Under the pieces are notes generated by a model. It ran no database searches. It saw nothing but the letters and a program-made list of their open reading frames with translations, and was not told the origin of the DNA. Below are positions 9,098 through 37,320 of a DNA stretch of 37,320 nt, piece by piece; within the stretch, counting starts at the first letter, position 1; the number at the start of each line of letters is the position of its first letter. The DNA is from an uncultured Clostridia bacterium (GTDB lineage: Bacteria; Bacillota; Clostridia; Christensenellales; UBA3700): contig CAMWNK010000014.1 in NCBI GenBank assembly GCA_947175555.1, positions 1 through 37,320 on the forward strand, read 5' to 3'. The translations under genes and the position numbers were made by a program.

Positions 9098-12000
9098 TTA
9101 TTTGAACATCGCTATTATCTTATACACTCCCGCCTTGCGCTCCAGCGATATCCCGCCTGCACTCATAGTTACGCCGTCCTCTATTATCGCATCCTTATCG
9201 CCTTGAGCGTAGTTTATCTCGTACACGCAGTCTTTATATCGGTATCTTATTACCATACCGCGCCAATTCTTGTACAAGGGATGAGAGCACACGATAGTAT
9301 TGTCTACTACGCGAAAGCCCAAGTAGTCTTCAAGCAACGTCTTGTAATACCATGCCGCGCTGCCCGTATACCAGCTCCAACCCGCTCTTGCATAATGCTG
9401 CGGATTGGTGTAGATATCGGCAGGCAGAACGTAAGGCTCTGCCATATATAGCTCATCTTCTTCACTCTCGCACCTGACTATCGGATTGAGGATACGCATC
9501 AATCTATACGCCTCATCCTCACGCCCCAGCTCGCATACCGCTTTGAACAGCCATATTGCCGCGTGCGTATACTGTCCGCCGTTTTCCCTCACCCCGCGCG
9601 GATAAGAGGATATATATCCGCAATACCTATCCTTGGTAAAAGGCGGCGACAGCAATGCGATTATGCCATGCTTGTAATCAACCAAGCTAAGCGCGCTATC
9701 TATCGCGATATCTGCGTGTTTACTCTCCGCCGCCCCCGATAATACCGCCCAAGACTGCGCAAGTATATCCAGCGCGCAAGGCTCGCCGTCTGCTCCCGCG
9801 CCGAGCGCAACGTCGTCGTCCGTGTATGCGCGCATAAACCTATCGCCTGTAAAAGCTGCGTCTATGCCTGCCTTTAGCCTGTCTTTTTCTTCAATATACT
9901 TTATTCGCTTATCCGCGTCCATGAGCGGCAGTATATCGGATATTACTCTGTACGCAAACATGCTCAGCCATACGCTTTCGCCCTTTCCTTCCGCCCCTAT
10001 GCCGTTGAGCGCATCGTTCCAGTCGCCGCAGCCTATAAGCAGCAATCCGTGCTTGCCGTATTTGAGCGCGCTGTCTATACCTCTCAATATATGGGATAAG
10101 ACGTCTTCCTTCTTCTCCCCGTATTTTCCGTGCTCCAATCTCGACTCCTGCATGACTTGCAAAGGAGAGGACGTGAGATATCTCACCTGTCTGGACAGTA
10201 TGCCCTTATCGCCGGTATGCTTGACGTACTGCGCCGCGACGTAGCCGAGGAAAAGTTTATCGTCGCTTATCCTCGTCCTTACGCCGAAGGCGGGCGGATG
10301 CCACCAGTGCATTACGTCGCCCTCTTCGTACTGATGAGCCGCGCTCTCGAGCAGCAACTCGCTCACGCGCTTTCTGTCCGTGTATATCACGGAAAGACAG
10401 TCTTGCAGCTGGTCTCTGAAGCCGATTGCTCCGCCCGCTTGATAGAATCCGCAACGCCCGTTCATGCGCGATGACACCACCTGATACATCAGCCAATTAT
10501 TGAGCAGCATATCAAGCTCCGCCTCTCCGCTTTTGATTGATATAGGCGAAAGAGATAGGAAGTACTTCCTGCTCAGCCCCTTAAGACGCGATATATCTTC
10601 TTCCTTAATTTCGTAGCATATGCGCTGATCTGCCGTCAATACAAAGTATACGCTCTTTTTTTCTCCCACTCCCAAATATACCTCTTGCGTCATAGCGCAG
10701 GCGGGATTATTGAAGTAAGACGTTGCCTGTCTGTATATGTGGTCGCAGCTCGACAGTCTGTCGGACAGCACCGCCGCATCCGTAACGGCACGCCCCGTAC
10801 CCAAGCACTTTATATACAATTCCTTTTTTGTTTTACCGCTTTTGACTCGCAGCACTTGCGGCGAAATTATCTCTGCTATAAGATAACTTCCCTCTCTCCA
10901 CCTGCCGAGCGCGGCGTCGCAATCGAGCACGCTTTCCACGACTTTATTATTATCTCCGACGTTATTCAACTCGATTTCGTATACCTTTGCCAATCCGTCG
11001 CAAACAGGATAGACGGACACCTCGCAGTTGACGTCTTCCACGCAACTGACAAAGCGCGTATAGCCTATGCCGTGCCTTACGTAGCCGCCTTCGTTCAGCT
11101 TATTGATACGCGTATAGCTGCCGCCTGTCAATATGAACAACCTTTCCGAGGCGGTGTCCTTGATTTGGTCGTTATACCATGCGGTCAACTTGTGCTCGTT
11201 GGAGTTACCGAAATACGTAAATCCTCCGCCGTTGTCCGTGATTACGAATCCGCCGTGCTGCATACATATCACGTTGCTATACGGCAGTCCCGATACAGAA
11301 GTCTGGATATAATCGCCCTCTTCGATAAAGTAGCCTTTACCCGATGCGAGATATTGCTTGGGCAACAGGCAGGGCTTGAGCTTGCCCTCTTTGATACACG
11401 TAGGCTCCGCGCCCCTGATGGCAGGCTGACTTATCTTATAATCGTCGTAGATTATAAAGGCGGTCTGCTTGACTTTCTTGACCTTATCTTCGTCCTTTTT
11501 ATCTACGGCAATGATGAAGTTGAATGCGGTGATGTCTCCCGCGCGCGTTTTCTTGAATACCTTATTGTATCTCGGTCTGTAATAGCTGTCCTCATCTTCG
11601 AGCAGAATATATAAGTTGCACGCTACGCCGCCCAAGTTCAAATACAGCGCCGCGCTTATTACCGTATCGGCTTTATCGGGATTGGCGTCATAATCGTATA
11701 CTATCGCCTTAGCGTTATATTCTACACCGTCGCCGCTGTTCAATAGAGACATGTTATTGATTTCTTTTGCGTTAAAGGGCTGATATATCAGCCTCGCCGC
11801 CATATCGGCAACCAACTCGCACACTTCGCGGTTGAACAGATATCTGCCTGCGGGGCTGCTGTGCAACGTCTTGCTGCACGCGACAGCATACTCGTCAAAG
11901 CCGTACGCGCAACTCCTCTCCGCGTTTTCCTTCAATTTGCCGATATCGTCCCCGCTCAATCTGCAAAACCAAATTTTACGACTTTCGCCAGCCGCGATTA

Positions 12001-15000
12001 CAACTTTTCCCTTCGCCCCAAGACATGGATTGAGCACTTCGCCTACTATCGATTGAGAGATGTTTGAGCTGAATATTTTCGGCTTGCTCTCGTCTCCCAA
12101 TCTGCCCAAGAAGGCGCGGATATCCGTAACGGCTATTATCGAGTTCAATCCGTTGACGCTCAGGCACGTATGCCAATCGCCCAGCTTTTCTCTGCTTCTT
12201 TTTGTGGCGAATATTTTATTGCCCTCTATGGCGGTGGATATAAACATATCGTTGAACGCGGGATGAGACTTATACTCGTCGTCATAAGCCATGCTCAGCT
12301 TTTCGTAGTACGCGACATCTATCTCCTTGCTCTTATCGCTTACGTTCTCTATCTCCAATATCCTTACTTCTGCACATAAGTTTGCGACCACAGACACTCT
12401 GAGACTGCACTTATCCGCTTCGTTTTCAAACTGCGAATATGAAGGCGTAAAGACGACTTTATATTTTTCTTTATCGTCTCTTAAAGGCGCAAACGTGGGA
12501 GAATATACCTTGTCGCCGTCTTTAATGTATATAAAGGCTCCTGCGTTATTCCTGAGACTGTCGCTTTTTATGCCGATATTCCTGTGTCTGTACACGCTGT
12601 ATCCGCAACCCGCGTCGTCTATCACCGTCGACACCAATCCGCCCGCCATCACGTTGATTGCAGGGAAAGATTGCAGCTTGTCGATATATCTGACATACCC
12701 GTCTTGACTGCGCTCCTTATAGATAAAATCCGCTTTGGGCTTGGCGATATTACGCTGCTCGGGCATTCTCTCTTCAAGCATCAATCTGCCGCCTGCCGTA
12801 ATCGGACTTTCGGCAAAAAGTTTCTGAATACAGTTATCCTCAAGCGCGTTGGTAACGGCGGCAAGTATCATGCCTTGATGGTGGGACATATAGCTTTTCA
12901 CAATCTCCCCGCCCGCAGTGTAATCGATTGCTTCGCAAAATCCGTATTCTCCGAAAGCTCCGACGCTTACGATTTTATTGAGATTGGCTACTGCTTTCTT
13001 GGGCGCAAATTCAAGGGCAAGCGCGCTTGCGTAAGGAGCGATAATACATCTGTCCGCGTCCGCTTTCAGGGCAAGCGAGGATATGCCAAACTGAGAATAC
13101 TTATAACTCATCGTATCGTTGAACTCGTAATATCCGCTCTCGCTTATGCCGAAAAGCCCGCCGCACTTGTTGTGTCGCATGACCTTGACCGCACGCTTAC
13201 ACGTAAGAGTAATCATACTTTTATCTACGGCAGGGAAAAACAGTTGCGGCATGAGATACTCGAATGCCGTACCGCCCCAAGAAATCAGCATATTGCCGTA
13301 GGTATTGACTATCCTGCGTCCCAAGTTATTCCACGCCGCGGTATCAGAGCTAAGGCACGCGCCTATATACGCAAGCGTTCTTGCCTCGGATGCGAGCATG
13401 TCGTAGTGCCCCTCGTACTTGTCCGTATCACAGTTGTAGCCGATATAGAACTGCCCTATAGAGGCATCGAATACCGCGTCCAAGTCGCAACCGAAAATCA
13501 GCTCGTCCAATTGAGAGCTATGTCTACCCTGTGAGTCAAGATAACTCGCCACGCATATGCAGCACGCAAGAAAATTGCCGCTGTCAACGCCTGAGACAAA
13601 GCGCGGTTGCTTGATTGAGCAATCCTTGACGTCGTACCAATTATACAGATGCCCTTTCCACTTAGGCAGCTTATGCAGCGCGGCAATATCGCTCATAATG
13701 AGCTCGCACGCCGTATCATCGTCGATATAACCGAGCTTTGCCGCGCATACGTGAGACAGTAGCCCCATCCCCAGATTGGTGGGCGAAGTCATCTGATTGC
13801 ACCCTTGCATAGGCTCGAATTGGTAGTTATCGCACACGAGCTTATTAGCCGCGCGCATGTCTTCGAAATACTTATACGTAGCGCGTGCGCAGTTGTCAAG
13901 GAATTCCCTATCTCCCTCGCTTATCCTCGTGCGCTTGCCTATCTTGATTGCGCCCAGATATAACGCAGCGGCGTATACGGCAAAAGATAACGAATATATT
14001 GCGACGCCTATATATCCTATCAATGCTACCGAGAGCGCCGTCATTACGACGACGGCAGACAGAATCTCCGCCACATGCTTTAATGCGGCTCCGCCCATAT
14101 GCTTTTGTCCGCTTCTGAAGGTGTTCCATTGCAGCAAGTCGCGCTTGAGCATTGCCTTGACGGCAGTAAACAGGCATACCTTGAGAGAAAGAAGCGCGCG
14201 ATACGGCGTCAATAAGATATCGGACATACAGCCTAATATGACGTAGCCTATGTGAGCGATTACGTATCTCAATCTCACGCCGTCCTGCAACGAAAACAAG
14301 AAAAATCCTATCTCCATAAGCGGCTTAGCTAATGCAAGCACCACTATCGGCAGCAAGATGTTTATGCTCGGGAATACAAGCGCGAGTATAAACAGCGCAA
14401 GCATGGCTATCGGTCTTAACAAAGATATGATATTGGACGTAATCGTATACGAGTAGATCCCATCTATCATTTGCTTGCCAGCGATATACGGCGCAAGCAG
14501 CAGGTCGCCGCGCATCCATCTCTCTTGCCTCTTGGTATCGGATAAAAACGTGAGCGGCGCGTCCTCGTATACGCTCTGATTGAGCGCGCCCGTATTGAGT
14601 ATCGCGCCCTCGATGATATCGTGGCTGAGTATCTTGCCGTCGGGCAATTTTCCCGACAGTTTCTCCTCGTATCTGTCCAGTCTGTAAATTCCTTTGCCGC
14701 AATAGATGCTTTTTCCGCACAGATTATAATAAAAGTCGCTGTACGAGCAATATGATTCCGTGCCTGAGGAATAAAGGAATTTACGCGAGTACAATGTCTT
14801 TATGGAACTCAAGCGATAACTGCATCCGAAGGTAAGCAAGTCGTACTTATCGGCAAGCGGATGCAACATCGCGTTGATTGCGCTCTTTACTCCCCCTACT
14901 CCTACTTCGGAGTCGCTGTCAAGTAGCATTACGAAGTTGGGCTTGTCCACCTTAAAGGTAATCAAATCGAACTTATCCGAATCCCCATTTATCAGATATT

Positions 15001-16597
15001 CGTTCATGTCGTGAATTGCGCCGCGCTTGCGCTCCCTTCCCCTGTATATCTTGCCGCAACCTACTCTTGATCTGAGCATTATACAGATATCCGAGTCGCC
15101 ATAACTCTTACACGCCTTGATAATATCTTCATCTTCTGCAACTCGCTTGTGCGCGGCAACCTTATAATCGGCAAGCAGAATATATCCGATATTGTCGTCT
15201 TTATTGCAATTACGCATTGCAACTACCCTGCGCATTGCCTCGTGCACGTCCTGCGCGCAACCGAATACTTCGGATACGGCAACCACAGTATATCCCTCTT
15301 TGGGGATATTCTTATAGTTCATGCGAGGTACGCTCCTTATGGGGATAAAGCTGCCGATAATTTTCCCCACGAAATACTCGCATATCTTGAGCGAAGCAAT
15401 AGCCGTAATTATGCCTATGCCTATCGAAAGACGCCAATTAGGCATTAGCAGCGCGACTAAAGCAGACAAAATCAAGTCCGATACAACTATAAGCGAGATA
15501 TACAGTCCCGAGTTTATGCCCGCAGACTTATCTCGCACAGCCTTAGTCGTCTTGCCCTTGACGGCATAGCCTATCTGCTTGCTCATGTCGAATATCACTT
15601 CGCCGAAGTGCAGATTGTGGCAGCGCGCTATCATGAAGGCATTGTCGATAATTGCTTTTTCCGTTACGTTATATCTGGTGGACAGCTTAGCCACGGCATC
15701 GGAATATAGACGCTTGGACTTGATGTCCATCTGCGCGTATACCCTATCTTTAGACATGACGGCGTCAATGGGCGATAAATTGATGAGATTGCTTTCGCTC
15801 AAGATATTATCGAGCTTTTTATACGACTTAATGCAGCTCGACAATATGACGTTGAGATCCACGACAAGCGATGTGAAATTGATATCGATATCGTCCACGC
15901 CTATGTTGCACCTTTTCAATATCAATCCGTCCGATACAGGCTTACCCGATTGCTTGTAGTAATATAGATACCCGGGGGATTTATAATATCTGCTGTCGAT
16001 TTGAGTGTCCGACTGAGCCCTGCGCCTCGACTTATCAAAGGCGATAATCTTGTCGCATACGCTCACCACGTTGAATATAAGCGCGTATCTGAATGCAATG
16101 GGCAGCGAATATATCTCCTCGTTAAAAAGCGGTGTGTACTTATTGAAATGCCGTATAGAATCCGCAATGCTCTTATAATCTATATCGCACTTATTGAGCT
16201 GGGTAATCATCTTGGCAAGCGCGGCGACTCTCACCTCGCCGTGGCTGTGCGGCAGCATGTTGAGACGGTTGAGCTGCCTTGCGTTGACGCTGACAGCGAG
16301 CGAATTGTAATTTTCGTATATCCACTTCTCGCACTCAAGCAGCGCCGCGCCTTCCTTGACCTTGCGGCACACGACCTTGAACGCCCTGCGAAGTTTGAAT
16401 AAAAGCCTGTACGCGCCTACGCCGAACCCCGTATTCTCTACCGCGGACATATTGACGGCAAGATTCTTGATATTCCATTCCATATCGCTTTGCGACACGG
16501 CGGCAATAATGTCGCTGCGCAGTCTTTTAACCAGCGATACTATACTTAAAATAACGAACCAGGCGACAAACACGCCTATAATAATATAAAATACCAT
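9098..16597 (-). CDS. Cyclic beta-1,2-glucan synthase-like protein (GT84 + cyclization + GH94), 2499 aa
   Basis: Numbering from the ATG at 16597. One N-terminal membrane helix (1-25), further hydrophobic pairs near 365-410, and clusters at 720-800 and 845-885. The GT84 glycosyltransferase carries MLLDSDSEVGVGG (558-569), SHDIIEG (658-664) and QERWMRGD (691-698). The middle glucoamylase-like domain has MTSPTNLGMGLLSHV (936-950) and HLYNWYD (983-989), the region that cyclizes the glucan in known synthases. Two GH94-type beta-sandwich regions follow, then the GH94 barrel with GFRDQLQDC and GDWNDALN (near 2191-2198, containing the expected acid Asp). Rhizobial homologues have 2800-2900 residues. 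A longer frame starts inside rnpB and is rejected. The product could be cyclic or linear; a C-terminal terminator and no partner genes suggest a stand-alone enzyme. Confidence 0.88.
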   Translation of the reverse strand: MVFYIIIGVFVAWFVILSIVSLVKRLRSDIIAAVSQSDMEWNIKNLAVNMSAVENTGFGVGAYRLLFKLRRAFKVVCRKVKEGAALLECEKWIYENYNSLAVSVNARQLNRLNMLPHSHGEVRVAALAKMITQLNKCDIDYKSIADSIRHFNKYTPLFNEEIYSLPIAFRYALIFNVVSVCDKIIAFDKSRRRAQSDTQIDSRYYKSPGYLYYYKQSGKPVSDGLILKRCNIGVDDIDINFTSLVVDLNVILSSCIKSYKKLDNILSESNLINLSPIDAVMSKDRVYAQMDIKSKRLYSDAVAKLSTRYNVTEKAIIDNAFMIARCHNLHFGEVIFDMSKQIGYAVKGKTTKAVRDKSAGINSGLYISLIVVSDLILSALVALLMPNWRLSIGIGIITAIASLKICEYFVGKIIGSFIPIRSVPRMNYKNIPKEGYTVVAVSEVFGCAQDVHEAMRRVVAMRNCNKDDNIGYILLADYKVAAHKRVAEDEDIIKACKSYGDSDICIMLRSRVGCGKIYRGRERKRGAIHDMNEYLINGDSDKFDLITFKVDKPNFVMLLDSDSEVGVGGVKSAINAMLHPLADKYDLLTFGCSYRLSSIKTLYSRKFLYSSGTESYCSYSDFYYNLCGKSIYCGKGIYRLDRYEEKLSGKLPDGKILSHDIIEGAILNTGALNQSVYEDAPLTFLSDTKRQERWMRGDLLLAPYIAGKQMIDGIYSYTITSNIISLLRPIAMLALFILALVFPSINILLPIVVLALAKPLMEIGFFLFSLQDGVRLRYVIAHIGYVILGCMSDILLTPYRALLSLKVCLFTAVKAMLKRDLLQWNTFRSGQKHMGGAALKHVAEILSAVVVMTALSVALIGYIGVAIYSLSFAVYAAALYLGAIKIGKRTRISEGDREFLDNCARATYKYFEDMRAANKLVCDNYQFEPMQGCNQMTSPTNLGMGLLSHVCAAKLGYIDDDTACELIMSDIAALHKLPKWKGHLYNWYDVKDCSIKQPRFVSGVDSGNFLACCICVASYLDSQGRHSSQLDELIFGCDLDAVFDASIGQFYIGYNCDTDKYEGHYDMLASEARTLAYIGACLSSDTAAWNNLGRRIVNTYGNMLISWGGTAFEYLMPQLFFPAVDKSMITLTCKRAVKVMRHNKCGGLFGISESGYYEFNDTMSYKYSQFGISSLALKADADRCIIAPYASALALEFAPKKAVANLNKIVSVGAFGEYGFCEAIDYTAGGEIVKSYMSHHQGMILAAVTNALEDNCIQKLFAESPITAGGRLMLEERMPEQRNIAKPKADFIYKERSQDGYVRYIDKLQSFPAINVMAGGLVSTVIDDAGCGYSVYRHRNIGIKSDSLRNNAGAFIYIKDGDKVYSPTFAPLRDDKEKYKVVFTPSYSQFENEADKCSLRVSVVANLCAEVRILEIENVSDKSKEIDVAYYEKLSMAYDDEYKSHPAFNDMFISTAIEGNKIFATKRSREKLGDWHTCLSVNGLNSIIAVTDIRAFLGRLGDESKPKIFSSNISQSIVGEVLNPCLGAKGKVVIAAGESRKIWFCRLSGDDIGKLKENAERSCAYGFDEYAVACSKTLHSSPAGRYLFNREVCELVADMAARLIYQPFNAKEINNMSLLNSGDGVEYNAKAIVYDYDANPDKADTVISAALYLNLGGVACNLYILLEDEDSYYRPRYNKVFKKTRAGDITAFNFIIAVDKKDEDKVKKVKQTAFIIYDDYKISQPAIRGAEPTCIKEGKLKPCLLPKQYLASGKGYFIEEGDYIQTSVSGLPYSNVICMQHGGFVITDNGGGFTYFGNSNEHKLTAWYNDQIKDTASERLFILTGGSYTRINKLNEGGYVRHGIGYTRFVSCVEDVNCEVSVYPVCDGLAKVYEIELNNVGDNNKVVESVLDCDAALGRWREGSYLIAEIISPQVLRVKSGKTKKELYIKCLGTGRAVTDAAVLSDRLSSCDHIYRQATSYFNNPACAMTQEVYLGVGEKKSVYFVLTADQRICYEIKEEDISRLKGLSRKYFLSLSPISIKSGEAELDMLLNNWLMYQVVSSRMNGRCGFYQAGGAIGFRDQLQDCLSVIYTDRKRVSELLLESAAHQYEEGDVMHWWHPPAFGVRTRISDDKLFLGYVAAQYVKHTGDKGILSRQVRYLTSSPLQVMQESRLEHGKYGEKKEDVLSHILRGIDSALKYGKHGLLLIGCGDWNDALNGIGAEGKGESVWLSMFAYRVISDILPLMDADKRIKYIEEKDRLKAGIDAAFTGDRFMRAYTDDDVALGAGADGEPCALDILAQSWAVLSGAAESKHADIAIDSALSLVDYKHGIIALLSPPFTKDRYCGYISSYPRGVRENGGQYTHAAIWLFKAVCELGREDEAYRLMRILNPIVRCESEEDELYMAEPYVLPADIYTNPQHYARAGWSWYTGSAAWYYKTLLEDYLGFRVVDNTIVCSHPLYKNWRGMVIRYRYKDCVYEINYAQGDKDAIIEDGVTMSAGGISLERKAGVYKIIAMFK

Positions 16598-16656
16598 AAG
16601 CCTATAAGCAATTATTGACACGCAATCGTCGCTTATACAGCATTGAAGTCGATATA

Positions 16657-16982
16657 CCAAATAATCTGTAAGCCGGATTCTGTTATGACGGTCATCTGTC
16701 TAGACGCGACGTCGCCGACGCGTTCAAGCGATTTTCCGACGCGGCAGGCTACCGCATAATGTCGTTTTCTCTTGCACCGAGTGGGGTTTACATGGCTCTT
16801 CGCGTTACCGCAAAGACGGTGAGCTCTTACCTCGCCTTTCCATCCTTACCGACTATAAGTCGGCGGTCTATTTCTGTTGCACTTTCCTTTAAGTCGCCTT
16901 AACCTGTAGTTAGCAGGCACTCTGCCTTACGGTGTCCGGACTTTCCTCACGCCTTGCGGCCTGCGACCGTCCGATTATTTGG
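16657..16982 (-). ncRNA. rnpB: RNase P RNA (type A)
   Basis: The minus strand contains the universal GAGGAAAGTCCGGAC near the 5' end, GGCAGAGTGCC, GTGCAACAGAAATAGACCGCC, GGATGGAAAGGCGAGGTAAG, GTAAACCCCACTCGGTGCAA and the 3' block TAGACAGATGACCGTC...ACAGAATCCGGCTTAC. The ends are set by a perfect 10-bp P1 helix, CCAAATAATC (16973-16982) with GATTATTTGG (16657-16666). It is the catalytic RNA that matures tRNA 5' ends. The sequence order fits type A rather than the Bacillus type B. Length is about 326 nt. Confidence 0.96.
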
Positions 16983-35693: not shown

Positions 35694-36140
35694 TCAGAAC
35701 GTAAGCTCCGGATTGACGGACTCGAAATTACTCTTGTACAGATAATCGTACTTCTCGCCCCTGCAATGAGCTTCCCATCTCTCTACGTCCCAAAGCTCTA
35801 TCTTATTGCCCAGTCCCACAAAGACAACGTCCTTGGAGATATTGGCATACTTCTTGGCTTCGGGCATGAGGGTGAAACGTCCCTGATTATCTTCGCTCAG
35901 CTCACACATGGAAGATATCAATATTCTTGCATTGTTGAGCGACTCGCCTGCGGCAACTGTAACCATGCTCTCGAACTTCTCGAGCATCTTATTTGCCGTC
36001 TCGGCGGTAATAAGGCTAAGGCAGCCGTCTGCGGAATACATTGCATAAATGCCGGCTGTGCCCATATTGTAACGGAACTTCAGCGGTATTCTCAATCTAC
36101 CCTTATCGTCAGCATGAAGATAATACTTACCGATAAACAT
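35694..36140 (-). CDS. mraZ: MraZ, transcriptional regulator of the dcw cluster
   Basis: 148 residues: two AbrB/SpoVT-like half domains with DDKGRLRIPLKFR (11-23) and EDNQGRFTLMPEAKKYA (83-99). MraZ oligomerises and represses its own operon through direct repeats in its promoter. It is the first gene of the dcw operon; AGGAGG lies about 10 nt before the ATG at 36140. Its promoter and candidate operators are listed separately. Confidence 0.96.
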   Translation of the reverse strand: MFIGKYYLHADDKGRLRIPLKFRYNMGTAGIYAMYSADGCLSLITAETANKMLEKFESMVTVAAGESLNNARILISSMCELSEDNQGRFTLMPEAKKYANISKDVVFVGLGNKIELWDVERWEAHCRGEKYDYLYKSNFESVNPELTF

Positions 36141-36170: not shown

Positions 36171-36199
36171 ATTATAAACAGAGAAAAATCCCCTGTCAA
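36171..36199 (-). promoter_or_regulatory. Perfect sigma-A promoter of mraZ (dcw operon)
   Basis: TTGACA (36194-36199) and TATAAT (36171-36176) on the minus strand, 17-bp spacing. Predicted start near 36164 gives a 24-nt leader containing AGGAGG. Confidence 0.88.
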
Positions 36200-36213
36200 C
36201 CACTTTTTTCCAC
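36200..36213 (-). promoter_or_regulatory. Candidate MraZ operator
   Basis: Minus strand GTGGAAAAAAGTGG: two GTGG units 10 bp apart, directly abutting the -35 of mraZ. Repeats with this core and spacing are known MraZ targets. A second pair, GTGG at 36323-36326 and 36334-36337, is on the plus strand. Confidence 0.55.
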
Positions 36214-36352
36214 TAAATTGCATAAAATTGCACGTTAAAAATTTGACAATCAATATTTTGTGTCGTACATATGTTCTTATACAATTTTTTATAATTTTTA
36301 GGCTTGAAAATTCTGCTTTTAAGTGGAAATTCGGTGGAAAATTTTTCCTATT

Positions 36353-36397
36353 TTATCAACATTTTTAGGCATTTATCCACAAAAACACTGTGGATAA
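36353..36397. promoter_or_regulatory. DnaA-box cluster
   Basis: TTATCAACA (36353-36361, one mismatch), TTATCCACA (36373-36381, exact) and TGTGGATAA (36389-36397, exact, opposite strand). The first two are 20 bp apart and the last two form an inverted pair 7 bp apart. They lie in the 519-bp gap between mraZ and the metallophosphoesterase gene. Confidence 0.65.
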
Positions 36398-36539
36398 GTA
36401 GAAAATCAGAAATATTACGACTGAAATATCGTCATCGAGCCACTGCTCTGACTTGCAAGCATTTTCAGCGCGAAATCATAGGCTGCGCGCATAAAATTTT
36501 AACGCCGATTCAAATGTAAACATATGTTTTTATATGTGT

Positions 36540-36659
36540 CTGCACTGTATTGGAAAATGAATAATATACATAAATTATGAATAATTATAACATTGCCTGA
36601 GCGGCAAAATAATAATGATATATATATTGTTTATATATAAATAATTAAATAATATAATA
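36540..36659. other. AT-rich tract next to the DnaA boxes
   Basis: Between 36606 and 36659 there are only about two G/C bases; TATATATATTG and AATAATTAAATAATATAATA are typical. A small hairpin TTGCC-TGAGC-GGCAA is at 36593-36607. ACATATGT also recurs in this gap (near 36267 and 36529). No convincing protein gene is present in 36200-36659. Confidence 0.6.
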
Positions 36660-37320
36660 TTATAATACTTGTATAAGTTGATTATTCAATATATCGCAGG
36701 ACGTAAGATAATACTTTATCCCCTTTTTATCTACGATTAGGTTCTGTCTGCAATCGCTGCCGTGCAAATGTCCGTATACCACCGCGTCGACATTGTATGA
36801 CGCTATCATATCCGTTATTGCATTGTCGCCGTATCTGACGTCAAAGGGCGGATAATGGCACATGACTATTACCTTATCGTCATCTCCTCTCATCTTGCTC
36901 ATCTCTTTCAATGAAAGTCCCAAGCGTATCTCTTCTCTTTTGAGTATCTTAATATCTTGAGGGGAAGTCGCTCCCTGTTGCCACAGCCTGCTGCCGCATA
37001 TCAGCACGTTATCAAGCCTTAGGCAATCATTCTGAATAGCGTACATTCCCGTAGGCAACAGCGCCCTCACCTTGCCTATCGTGCTCCACCAATAGTCATG
37101 GTTGCCCTTTATGATTACTTTCCTGCCCTTCAGTCTCGCTACCCTGTCTATATCGCAAACAGCATCGCCCGCATTCATCGCCCAAGACAAATCTCCCGCA
37201 AGCAGCACGACGTCATCGTCTGCCACCTTGCTCGCCCAATCCGCCTCTATAGCAGCCATATGTCCCAGCCACTTATCACCGAAAATATCCATAGGCTTAT
37301 CCACGCTGCCCGACAAGTGT
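36660..37320 (-). CDS. Metallophosphoesterase (calcineurin-like), 5' end outside window
   Basis: About 220 residues visible. The frame is open to the window edge and the first codons read HLSGSVDKPMDIFG, the middle of the family N-terminus (normally DLHL...), so the start lies beyond 37320. Metal motifs GDLSWAM, GNHDYWW, CHYPPFD and GHLHGSD follow in order. It is a cytosolic two-metal phosphoesterase of unknown substrate, of the kind found in many Clostridia. It precedes mraZ on the same strand but is separated by 519 bp. Confidence 0.9.
   Translation of the reverse strand, partial: HLSGSVDKPMDIFGDKWLGHMAAIEADWASKVADDDVVLLAGDLSWAMNAGDAVCDIDRVARLKGRKVIIKGNHDYWWSTIGKVRALLPTGMYAIQNDCLRLDNVLICGSRLWQQGATSPQDIKILKREEIRLGLSLKEMSKMRGDDDKVIVMCHYPPFDVRYGDNAITDMIASYNVDAVVYGHLHGSDCRQNLIVDKKGIKYYLTSCDILNNQLIQVL

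What the first reader, a model, noticed from the sequence alone, without database searches (positions are those of the whole stretch)
36353..36667. DnaA-box cluster and AT-rich tract upstream of the dcw operon
Two exact and one near-exact DnaA boxes in 45 bp, followed after about 200 bp by a 60-bp almost pure AT tract, look like the parts of an origin or a DnaA titration site. Exact boxes are expected by chance far less than once in this gap. DnaA is not encoded here, so this could be a DnaA-regulated link between replication and division genes, or a secondary origin.
Basis: partly seen in the sequence, partly recalled or inferred. Interest (0 to 1): 0.7.

Follow-up and report, generated by a model that had tools for sequence, protein, structure and literature searches.

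The report
DnaA-box switch before division genes
Exact copies of the sequence that the replication-starting protein DnaA recognises sit in the control region of the cell-division gene cluster here, and again in front of a cell-wall amidase gene in this genome and many relatives, so these bacteria likely tie cell division and wall splitting to the state of DNA replication.

Summary
The boxes are real: TTATCCACA at 36373-36381 (+) and 36389-36397 (-), and TTATCAACA at 36353-36361 (+), a 9-mer common at relatives' origins. Two exact boxes arose in 1 of 20,000 shuffles of the 519-bp gap. They lie 154-198 bp upstream of the -35 of a perfect-consensus mraZ promoter with MraZ-type repeats; a LexA-type operator, kept in 5 of 5 genus members that have mraZ, lies between. 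In 39 family genomes the 500 bp before mraZ hold 16 exact boxes in 10 genomes (5 of 6 genera; shuffle mean 0.21). Close exact pairs form 62 clusters in 35 of 46 genomes: 20 at an Amidase_3 gene, 20 in the purE/icd gap, 6 at mraZ, 2 at maf-mreB, 14 elsewhere. In 21 of 30 inverted pairs a LexA-type core is nested between the boxes. GC skew of a relative does not turn at mraZ, and the AT tract is not conserved, so a second origin is unlikely. Best reading: predicted DnaA control, beside LexA and MraZ, of the dcw operon, one site of a small DnaA-box regulon. Against it: four of five genus members carry only degenerate boxes, and no binding was tested. LexA at mraZ and DnaA at ftsL are already in print.

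The parts
36353..36361 (+). DnaA-type box TTATCAACA (one mismatch to TTATCCACA; the commonest box-like 9-mer found in 330 bp upstream of dnaN in relatives)
36373..36381 (+). exact DnaA box TTATCCACA
36389..36397 (-). exact DnaA box TTATCCACA, inverted to the previous one with a 7-bp spacer
36258..36284 (-). 27-bp near-palindrome TTGTATAAGAACATATGTACGACACAA (core GAACATATGTAC 36265-36276), predicted LexA operator; same core as the genome's own lexA promoter (GAACATATGTGCT)
36518..36529 (.). AAACATATGTTT palindrome, weaker LexA-like site; similar sites in the four genus relatives (read by eye)
36171..36199 (-). mraZ promoter: TTGACA (36199-36194), 17-bp spacer, TATAAT (36176-36171), 12 of 12 consensus positions
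36200..36213 (-). two GTGG motifs 10 bp apart directly upstream of the -35: MraZ-type repeats
36323..36337 (+). two GTGG motifs 11 bp apart on the other strand; possible second MraZ-type site
35694..36140 (-). mraZ, first gene of the dcw cluster (then rsmH/mraW, unnamed, pbp, mur ligase, mraY, murD, ftsW-type, EPSP_synthase-family genes)
36607..36667 (.). AT tract, 2 G/C in 61 bp, at the 3' end of the upstream metallophosphoesterase gene; not conserved in the genus, probably not part of the element

Best explanation
The paired DnaA boxes upstream of mraZ are likely a binding site through which the replication initiator DnaA would tune transcription of the cell-division (dcw) operon, next to a predicted LexA operator and MraZ-type repeats at the promoter. 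Shown: the boxes; their recurrence before mraZ in five of six genera; the same box pairs at an amidase gene, purE/icd and maf-mreB; the same 9-mer at origins; the LexA-type sites and the perfect promoter. Inferred: that DnaA, LexA and MraZ bind these sites in this organism. Proposed mechanism, untested: DnaA on the inverted pair about 200 bp upstream of the transcription start acts as a repressor or modulator, alone or with LexA bound between boxes and promoter, so that dcw output follows the free DnaA pool and DNA damage, while MraZ adjusts the promoter itself. The amidase and maf-mreB sites would put wall splitting and cell shape under the same input.
For: (1) Exact boxes before mraZ: 16 in 10 of 39 family genomes, dinucleotide shuffles mean 0.21, maximum 2 in 300 rounds. 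(2) Close pairs within 20 bp: tandem in 34 and inverted in 24 of 46 genomes, reversed-pattern control 0 in every genome; 62 clusters, 20 amidase, 20 purE/icd, 6 mraZ, 2 maf-mreB, 4 beside a WYL-domain gene, 1 upstream of dnaA, 9 other (labels set by hand). (3) The 9-mer lies at origins: exact box in 19 of 30 genomes in up to 330 bp upstream of dnaN; in G002 these boxes lie next to dnaN on the contig where the GC skew turns; outside the family one inverted pair lies directly upstream of dnaA and one near dnaN. (4) Outside the family 24 of 271 genomes have an inverted pair with a 14-bp spacer: 12 of these 24 lie at the amidase gene, 1 at mraZ. (5) LexA: 22 of 22 lexA upstream regions read have [GA]AACNNNTGTGCT, and 19 of 39 mraZ regions have [GA]AACNNNTGT within 200 bp (shuffle mean 1.0, maximum 5), including 5 of 5 of the genus. 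(6) 21 of 30 inverted pairs hold a nested AAC-N4-GTT core. (7) The genome's DnaA has the RDHTT stretch of the box-reading helix (residues D, H, T as listed in passages of PMC7561715).
Against: Only this one of five genus members with mraZ has exact boxes; G001-G004 keep a degenerate pair at the same place (TTATCCCCA, TTATCCACT, TTTTCCCC and the like) that DnaA may bind weakly or not. 29 of 39 family genomes have no exact box in the stretch examined. Two other 9-mers of the same composition are commoner there than TTATCCACA (TTTCCCAAA 25 sites in 17 genomes, AATTTCCAC 17 in 13; rank 3 of 1680), so the region is rich in GTGG/GGGA-type words. The own-genome pair has no full LexA core between its boxes. 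23 of 24 stretches upstream of dnaA have no exact box, and the genome's own 179 bp upstream of dnaN has none. 24 named relatives outside the order sample show no box, and 57 of 61 genomes of other families show no exact box. Boxes 154-198 bp upstream of the -35 are far for simple repression. E. coli DnaA boxes upstream of ftsZ were found not to act on it (review passages, PMC8203912).
Confidence: 0.6

Rival explanations
1. DnaA binds the pair, but only as a titration or DnaA-recharging site (like datA/DARS or the B. subtilis clusters); dcw transcription is not affected.
For: The boxes lie far upstream of the promoter; such sites are known elsewhere (listing and abstract of PMC4585315; abstract and passages of PMC4447404).
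Against: Clusters sit again and again in the gaps before the same few genes in several genera, which a pure titration site would not need.
Confidence: 0.17
2. The TTATCCACA words are by-products of a GTGG/TGGG-rich MraZ operator array; MraZ, not DnaA, binds.
For: GTGG repeats abound in the region; TGG-N7-TGG repeats lie within 130 bp of mraZ in 23 of 39 genomes (shuffle mean 0.54); the commonest same-composition words there are TTTCCCAAA and AATTTCCAC; genus relatives keep TCC.C rather than the whole box.
Against: Proximal repeats are spaced 10 bp; box pairs recur at 12 bp (G026, G041, G044, own C10) or inverted. The same pairs occur before genes without mraZ and next to dnaA and dnaN.
Confidence: 0.12
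3. The boxes and the AT tract are parts of a secondary or plasmid-like origin.
For: Boxes plus a 97% A/T tract 210 bp away.
Against: No skew turn at mraZ in G002 over 172 kb; the turn is on the dnaN contig. The window's skew is negative throughout. The AT tract is absent in four genus relatives. 29 of 39 family genomes have no exact box there.
Confidence: 0.03
4. The inverted arms form an RNA hairpin (terminator or attenuator).
For: Both strands fold better than shuffles (z -2.5 and -3.3; 1 of 200 shuffles as good on each).
Against: No T run follows; the terminator scan did not list it. It lies upstream of the mraZ promoter. In relatives many pairs are tandem, which cannot form this hairpin.
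Confidence: 0.04
5. Chance occurrence in this genome.
For: Exact boxes are missing in the other four genus members with mraZ.
Against: 1 of 20,000 shuffles has two boxes; family-wide excess 16 against 0.21.
Confidence: 0.04

Closest known systems
DnaA at the ftsL promoter region, Bacillus subtilis (Goranov et al. 2005, as told in the review PMC8203912; passages read)
   Same: Replication initiator at genes of the division cluster in a Firmicute; the review says DnaA was bound there in vivo.
   Different: There by ChIP; here exact box pairs upstream of mraZ, recurring in a distant uncultured group together with an amidase gene, maf-mreB and purE. That ftsL lies downstream of mraZ in B. subtilis is recalled.
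DnaA and LexA co-control of uvrB, E. coli (Wurihan et al. 2018, PMC6015884; abstract and outline read)
   Same: DnaA and LexA sites in one promoter region, one DnaA box overlapping a LexA box; the abstract reports repression by both and competition.
   Different: A repair gene in E. coli; here a LexA-type core sits between inverted DnaA boxes, mostly with a 14-bp spacer, before a cell-wall amidase gene, and separate sites lie before mraZ.
LexA site before mraZ in gut Firmicutes (Cornish et al. 2014, PMC3998124; passages read)
   Same: mraZ as an SOS target; one site bound by B. subtilis LexA in EMSA.
   Different: No DnaA boxes appear in the passages that I read; the paper does not concern this genome.
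Bacillus/Clostridium-type oriC with DnaA-box clusters (PMC7561715; passages read)
   Same: Same 9-mer.
   Different: No dnaA/dnaN here, no skew turn at mraZ in a relative, AT tract not conserved.

Membership tests
DnaA-box cluster acting as a transcriptional control site | Several DnaA boxes close together, beyond chance | tested here: met
DnaA-box cluster acting as a transcriptional control site | Same 9-mer at the group's own origin | tested here: met
   19 of 30 genomes upstream of dnaN; G002 skew. Own genome: only 179 bp available, no box.
DnaA-box cluster acting as a transcriptional control site | Conserved in relatives at the same gene | tested here: inconclusive
   10 of 39 genomes, 5 of 6 genera, but 1 of 5 in the own genus
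DnaA-box cluster acting as a transcriptional control site | DnaA binding and effect on transcription | not testable with these tools
   needs EMSA, footprint, reporter
Replication origin | GC-skew turn at the site | tested here: not met
   relative G002, 172 kb around mraZ; the own contig ends 0.9 kb beyond the boxes
Replication origin | AT-rich unwinding tract, conserved with the boxes | tested here: not met
   four genus relatives
LexA operator (SOS box) | Same core as the organism's own lexA promoter | tested here: met
   GAACATATGT in both; the 3' half GTAC differs from GTGCT of lexA
LexA operator (SOS box) | LexA gene present and binding shown | tested here: inconclusive
   gene on C74; binding not testable here
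MraZ operator | TGG-type direct repeats with 10-bp period at the mraZ promoter | tested here: met
   GTGG at 36200-36203 and 36210-36213 (minus strand); 23 of 39 family genomes. The motif definition is recalled.
Intrinsic terminator | Stem followed by a T run | tested here: not met

The most novel reading that the evidence does not exclude
In this uncultured group the replication initiator and the SOS repressor read the same switches: DnaA-box pairs, many with a LexA operator nested between them, sit before the genes for septum building (mraZ/dcw), septum splitting (amidase), cell shape (maf-mreB) and purine supply (purE), so that one DnaA/LexA regulon wires the division programme directly to replication and DNA damage.
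Probability: 0.35. Interest if true: 0.85.

Novelty: new variant of a known kind. Interest (0 to 1): 0.62.

Why it matters
How bacteria time division to replication is an open question; [quoted passage not shown] A lineage in which exact DnaA-box pairs recur before dcw, a wall amidase, maf-mreB and purE, some interleaved with LexA operators, gives a short list of DNA fragments on which a direct link can be tested. Searches for DnaA box with amidase and mreB (0 papers) and for DnaA boxes with LexA box (0 papers) found no such report in the library held; the search for mraZ with DnaA box listed 12 papers, of which I looked into one.

Tried and rejected
Secondary origin: GC skew of the window and of G002, AT tract in genus relatives; rejected. 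Terminator or hairpin; rejected. RNA element: Rfam gave only RNase P at 16653-16982. recA as a LexA yardstick: 0 of 26 regions of 300 bp showed the palindrome; the sequences show an upstream gene ending close to recA, so this was a poor yardstick; lexA was used instead. My first pattern for lexA found only 3 of 22; the operator [GA]AACNNNTGTGCT was then read off the printed sequences and counted on the same 22 sequences, so that count is not independent. Outgroups: 24 named loci had no box, but the mraZ frame was plainly wrong in at least L046 and L058, and L045 had only 152 bp upstream. 61 genomes of other families: exact boxes in 4. Upstream of dnaA: 1 of 24. A first print of genus upstream sequences oriented L009 wrongly; redone. 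The named organism was not found: genome contigs gave relatives of RsmH at 63% identity or less.

Rows dropped: of 41 family genomes with mraZ, two (G043, G045) had under 100 bp upstream and were left out; seven of those kept had 141-299 bp or N-masked sequence. lexA: 22 of the 30 loci fetched were used; recA: 26 of 30. dnaN: 30 genomes (29 of 30 loci plus G002) of 37 with a match. Of 62 clusters, G036:C83 is counted as mraZ by inference: its contig ends 80 bp after the boxes, which follow the metallophosphoesterase gene that precedes mraZ in relatives; G024 and G027 are counted as purE/icd on icd alone.

Full report
What was checked. The window is the whole of contig C14 of a 1.74-Mb, 102-contig genome. 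The dcw cluster runs on the minus strand from mraZ (35694-36140) downward. The gap to the next gene upstream, a metallophosphoesterase (36660-37319, -), is 519 bp. In it lie TTATCAACA 36353-36361 (+), TTATCCACA 36373-36381 (+) and its inverted copy 36389-36397. Twenty thousand dinucleotide shuffles of the gap gave 0.007 exact boxes on average and one shuffle with two. In the genome 31 exact boxes occur (7 for the reversed word). Six of the 31 lie outside every stop-to-stop frame of 100 codons or more: this pair, the C10 pair, C9:79 and C44:9476.

Anatomy of the gap. On the mraZ strand the promoter is TTGACA-17-TATAAT, 12 of 12, with two GTGG motifs 10 bp apart just upstream. Next comes a 27-bp near-palindrome with the core GAACATATGTAC; the genome's lexA promoter has GAACATATGTGCT, as do, with small changes, all 22 lexA regions read ([GA]AACNNNTGTGCT). 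Then come the DnaA boxes, 154-198 bp upstream of the -35, and a weaker palindrome AAACATATGTTT at 36518-36529. Alignment of the five genus members with mraZ shows the promoter, the GTGG motif and the LexA-type core nearly unchanged, whereas at the boxes only TT.TCC.C is invariant: the other four have TTATCCCCA/TTATCCACT, TTATCCACC or TTTTCCCC-type words. The exact boxes are therefore either a recent sharpening or a remnant, which is the main weakness of the DnaA reading.

Recurrence. In 39 family genomes the stretch of up to 500 bp before mraZ holds 16 exact boxes in 10 genomes from 5 of 6 genera; shuffles give 0.21, at most 2. They lie 186-339 bp upstream of the MraZ match, often as pairs 12 bp apart, in either orientation. 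TTATCCACA ranks third of 1680 words of its composition there; TTTCCCAAA and AATTTCCAC are commoner, which keeps an MraZ-type array in play. In 61 genomes of other families 4 have exact boxes, and a fifth, G114, has an inverted pair 67 bp upstream of the mraZ match.

A regulon. Pairs with at most 20 bp between boxes were sought in all 46 family genomes: tandem pairs in 34, inverted in 24, the reversed pattern in none. The 76 tandem and 30 inverted places merge into 62 clusters in 35 genomes: 20 at an Amidase_3 gene in six of six genera, 20 in the purE/icd gap, 6 at mraZ, 4 beside a WYL-domain gene, 2 before maf-mreB, 1 upstream of dnaA, 9 other (Pfam). Three of the nine others adjoin an FGAR-AT linker-domain (purL-like) gene, a Xan_ur_permease gene and a PNP_UDP_1 gene. 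This genome's C10 cluster lies in front of the amidase gene, with a SpoIIE-family gene on the other side. Of the 30 inverted pairs, 21 hold AAC-N4-GTT between the boxes; of 23 elements read in detail 19 are at the amidase gene (17 with the core) and 4 beside the WYL gene (4 with it). The window's own pair, the C10 element and the g3 pairs lack a full core. Outside the family 24 of 271 genomes have the 14-bp inverted pair: 12 at the amidase gene (families f3, f8, f17), 1 at mraZ, 1 directly upstream of dnaA, 1 near dnaN, 9 other; 1 of 24 has the LexA-type core.

Is it DnaA? The 9-mer is the family's origin word: in up to 330 bp upstream of dnaN, 30 genomes hold 21 exact boxes in 19 genomes and 34 TTATCAACA. 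In G002 the skew is positive through 80-245 kb around mraZ (one 5-kb bin at -0.005) and on the other contig changes sign between about 50 and 75 kb, next to dnaN at 75.9-76.2 kb and its boxes; dnaA lies 43 kb away. The stretch upstream of dnaA has an exact box in 1 of 24 genomes. The genome encodes a DnaA with RDHTT.

How it would work. Shown are the sites and their recurrence. Inferred are the binding and its sign. DnaA on the pair would modulate dcw, LexA would add a damage input, and MraZ would set the promoter itself. In E. coli uvrB DnaA and LexA both repress and compete (abstract, PMC6015884); in B. subtilis DnaA binds the ftsL promoter region in vivo (review passage); LexA before mraZ was found in gut metagenomes and one site was bound in vitro (passages). 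The single facts are therefore near known ground; the combination and the gene set are what is new here, as far as searches show.

Verdict. New variant of a known kind.

Noticed in passing
G000 C10:31829-31871 (L138, L316): TTATCCACA-N3-TTATCCACA, AAACATATATTT and TGTGGACAA in front of an Amidase_3 gene, with a SpoIIE-family gene on the other side: the genome's second DnaA-box cluster.
   Followed up: yes
purE/icd gap, e.g. L340, L345, L325: Triple tandem TTATCCACA (starts 12 and 20 bp apart) in 20 family genomes, near purine genes; further clusters adjoin purL-like, Xan_ur_permease and PNP_UDP_1 genes.
   Followed up: partly
L319, L320 (genus g3): DnaA-box pairs upstream of maf-mreB.
   Followed up: partly
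G002 C7:32.7 kb and 75.9 kb; G000 C9 and C48: In this genus dnaA and dnaN are apart (43 kb in G002), while they adjoin in other genera; the G002 skew turn is near dnaN.
   Followed up: partly
G000 C9:1-200 (L137): Contig end with TTATCCACA, ATATCCACA and TTATCCACT in AT-rich DNA, perhaps part of the origin broken by assembly.
   Followed up: no
window 16653-16982 (-): RNase P RNA, class A (Rfam RF00010, 277.9 bits), between the dcw region and a 2520-codon open frame (9098-16660).
   Followed up: no
window 9098-16660 (-): 2520-codon open frame, not examined.
   Followed up: no
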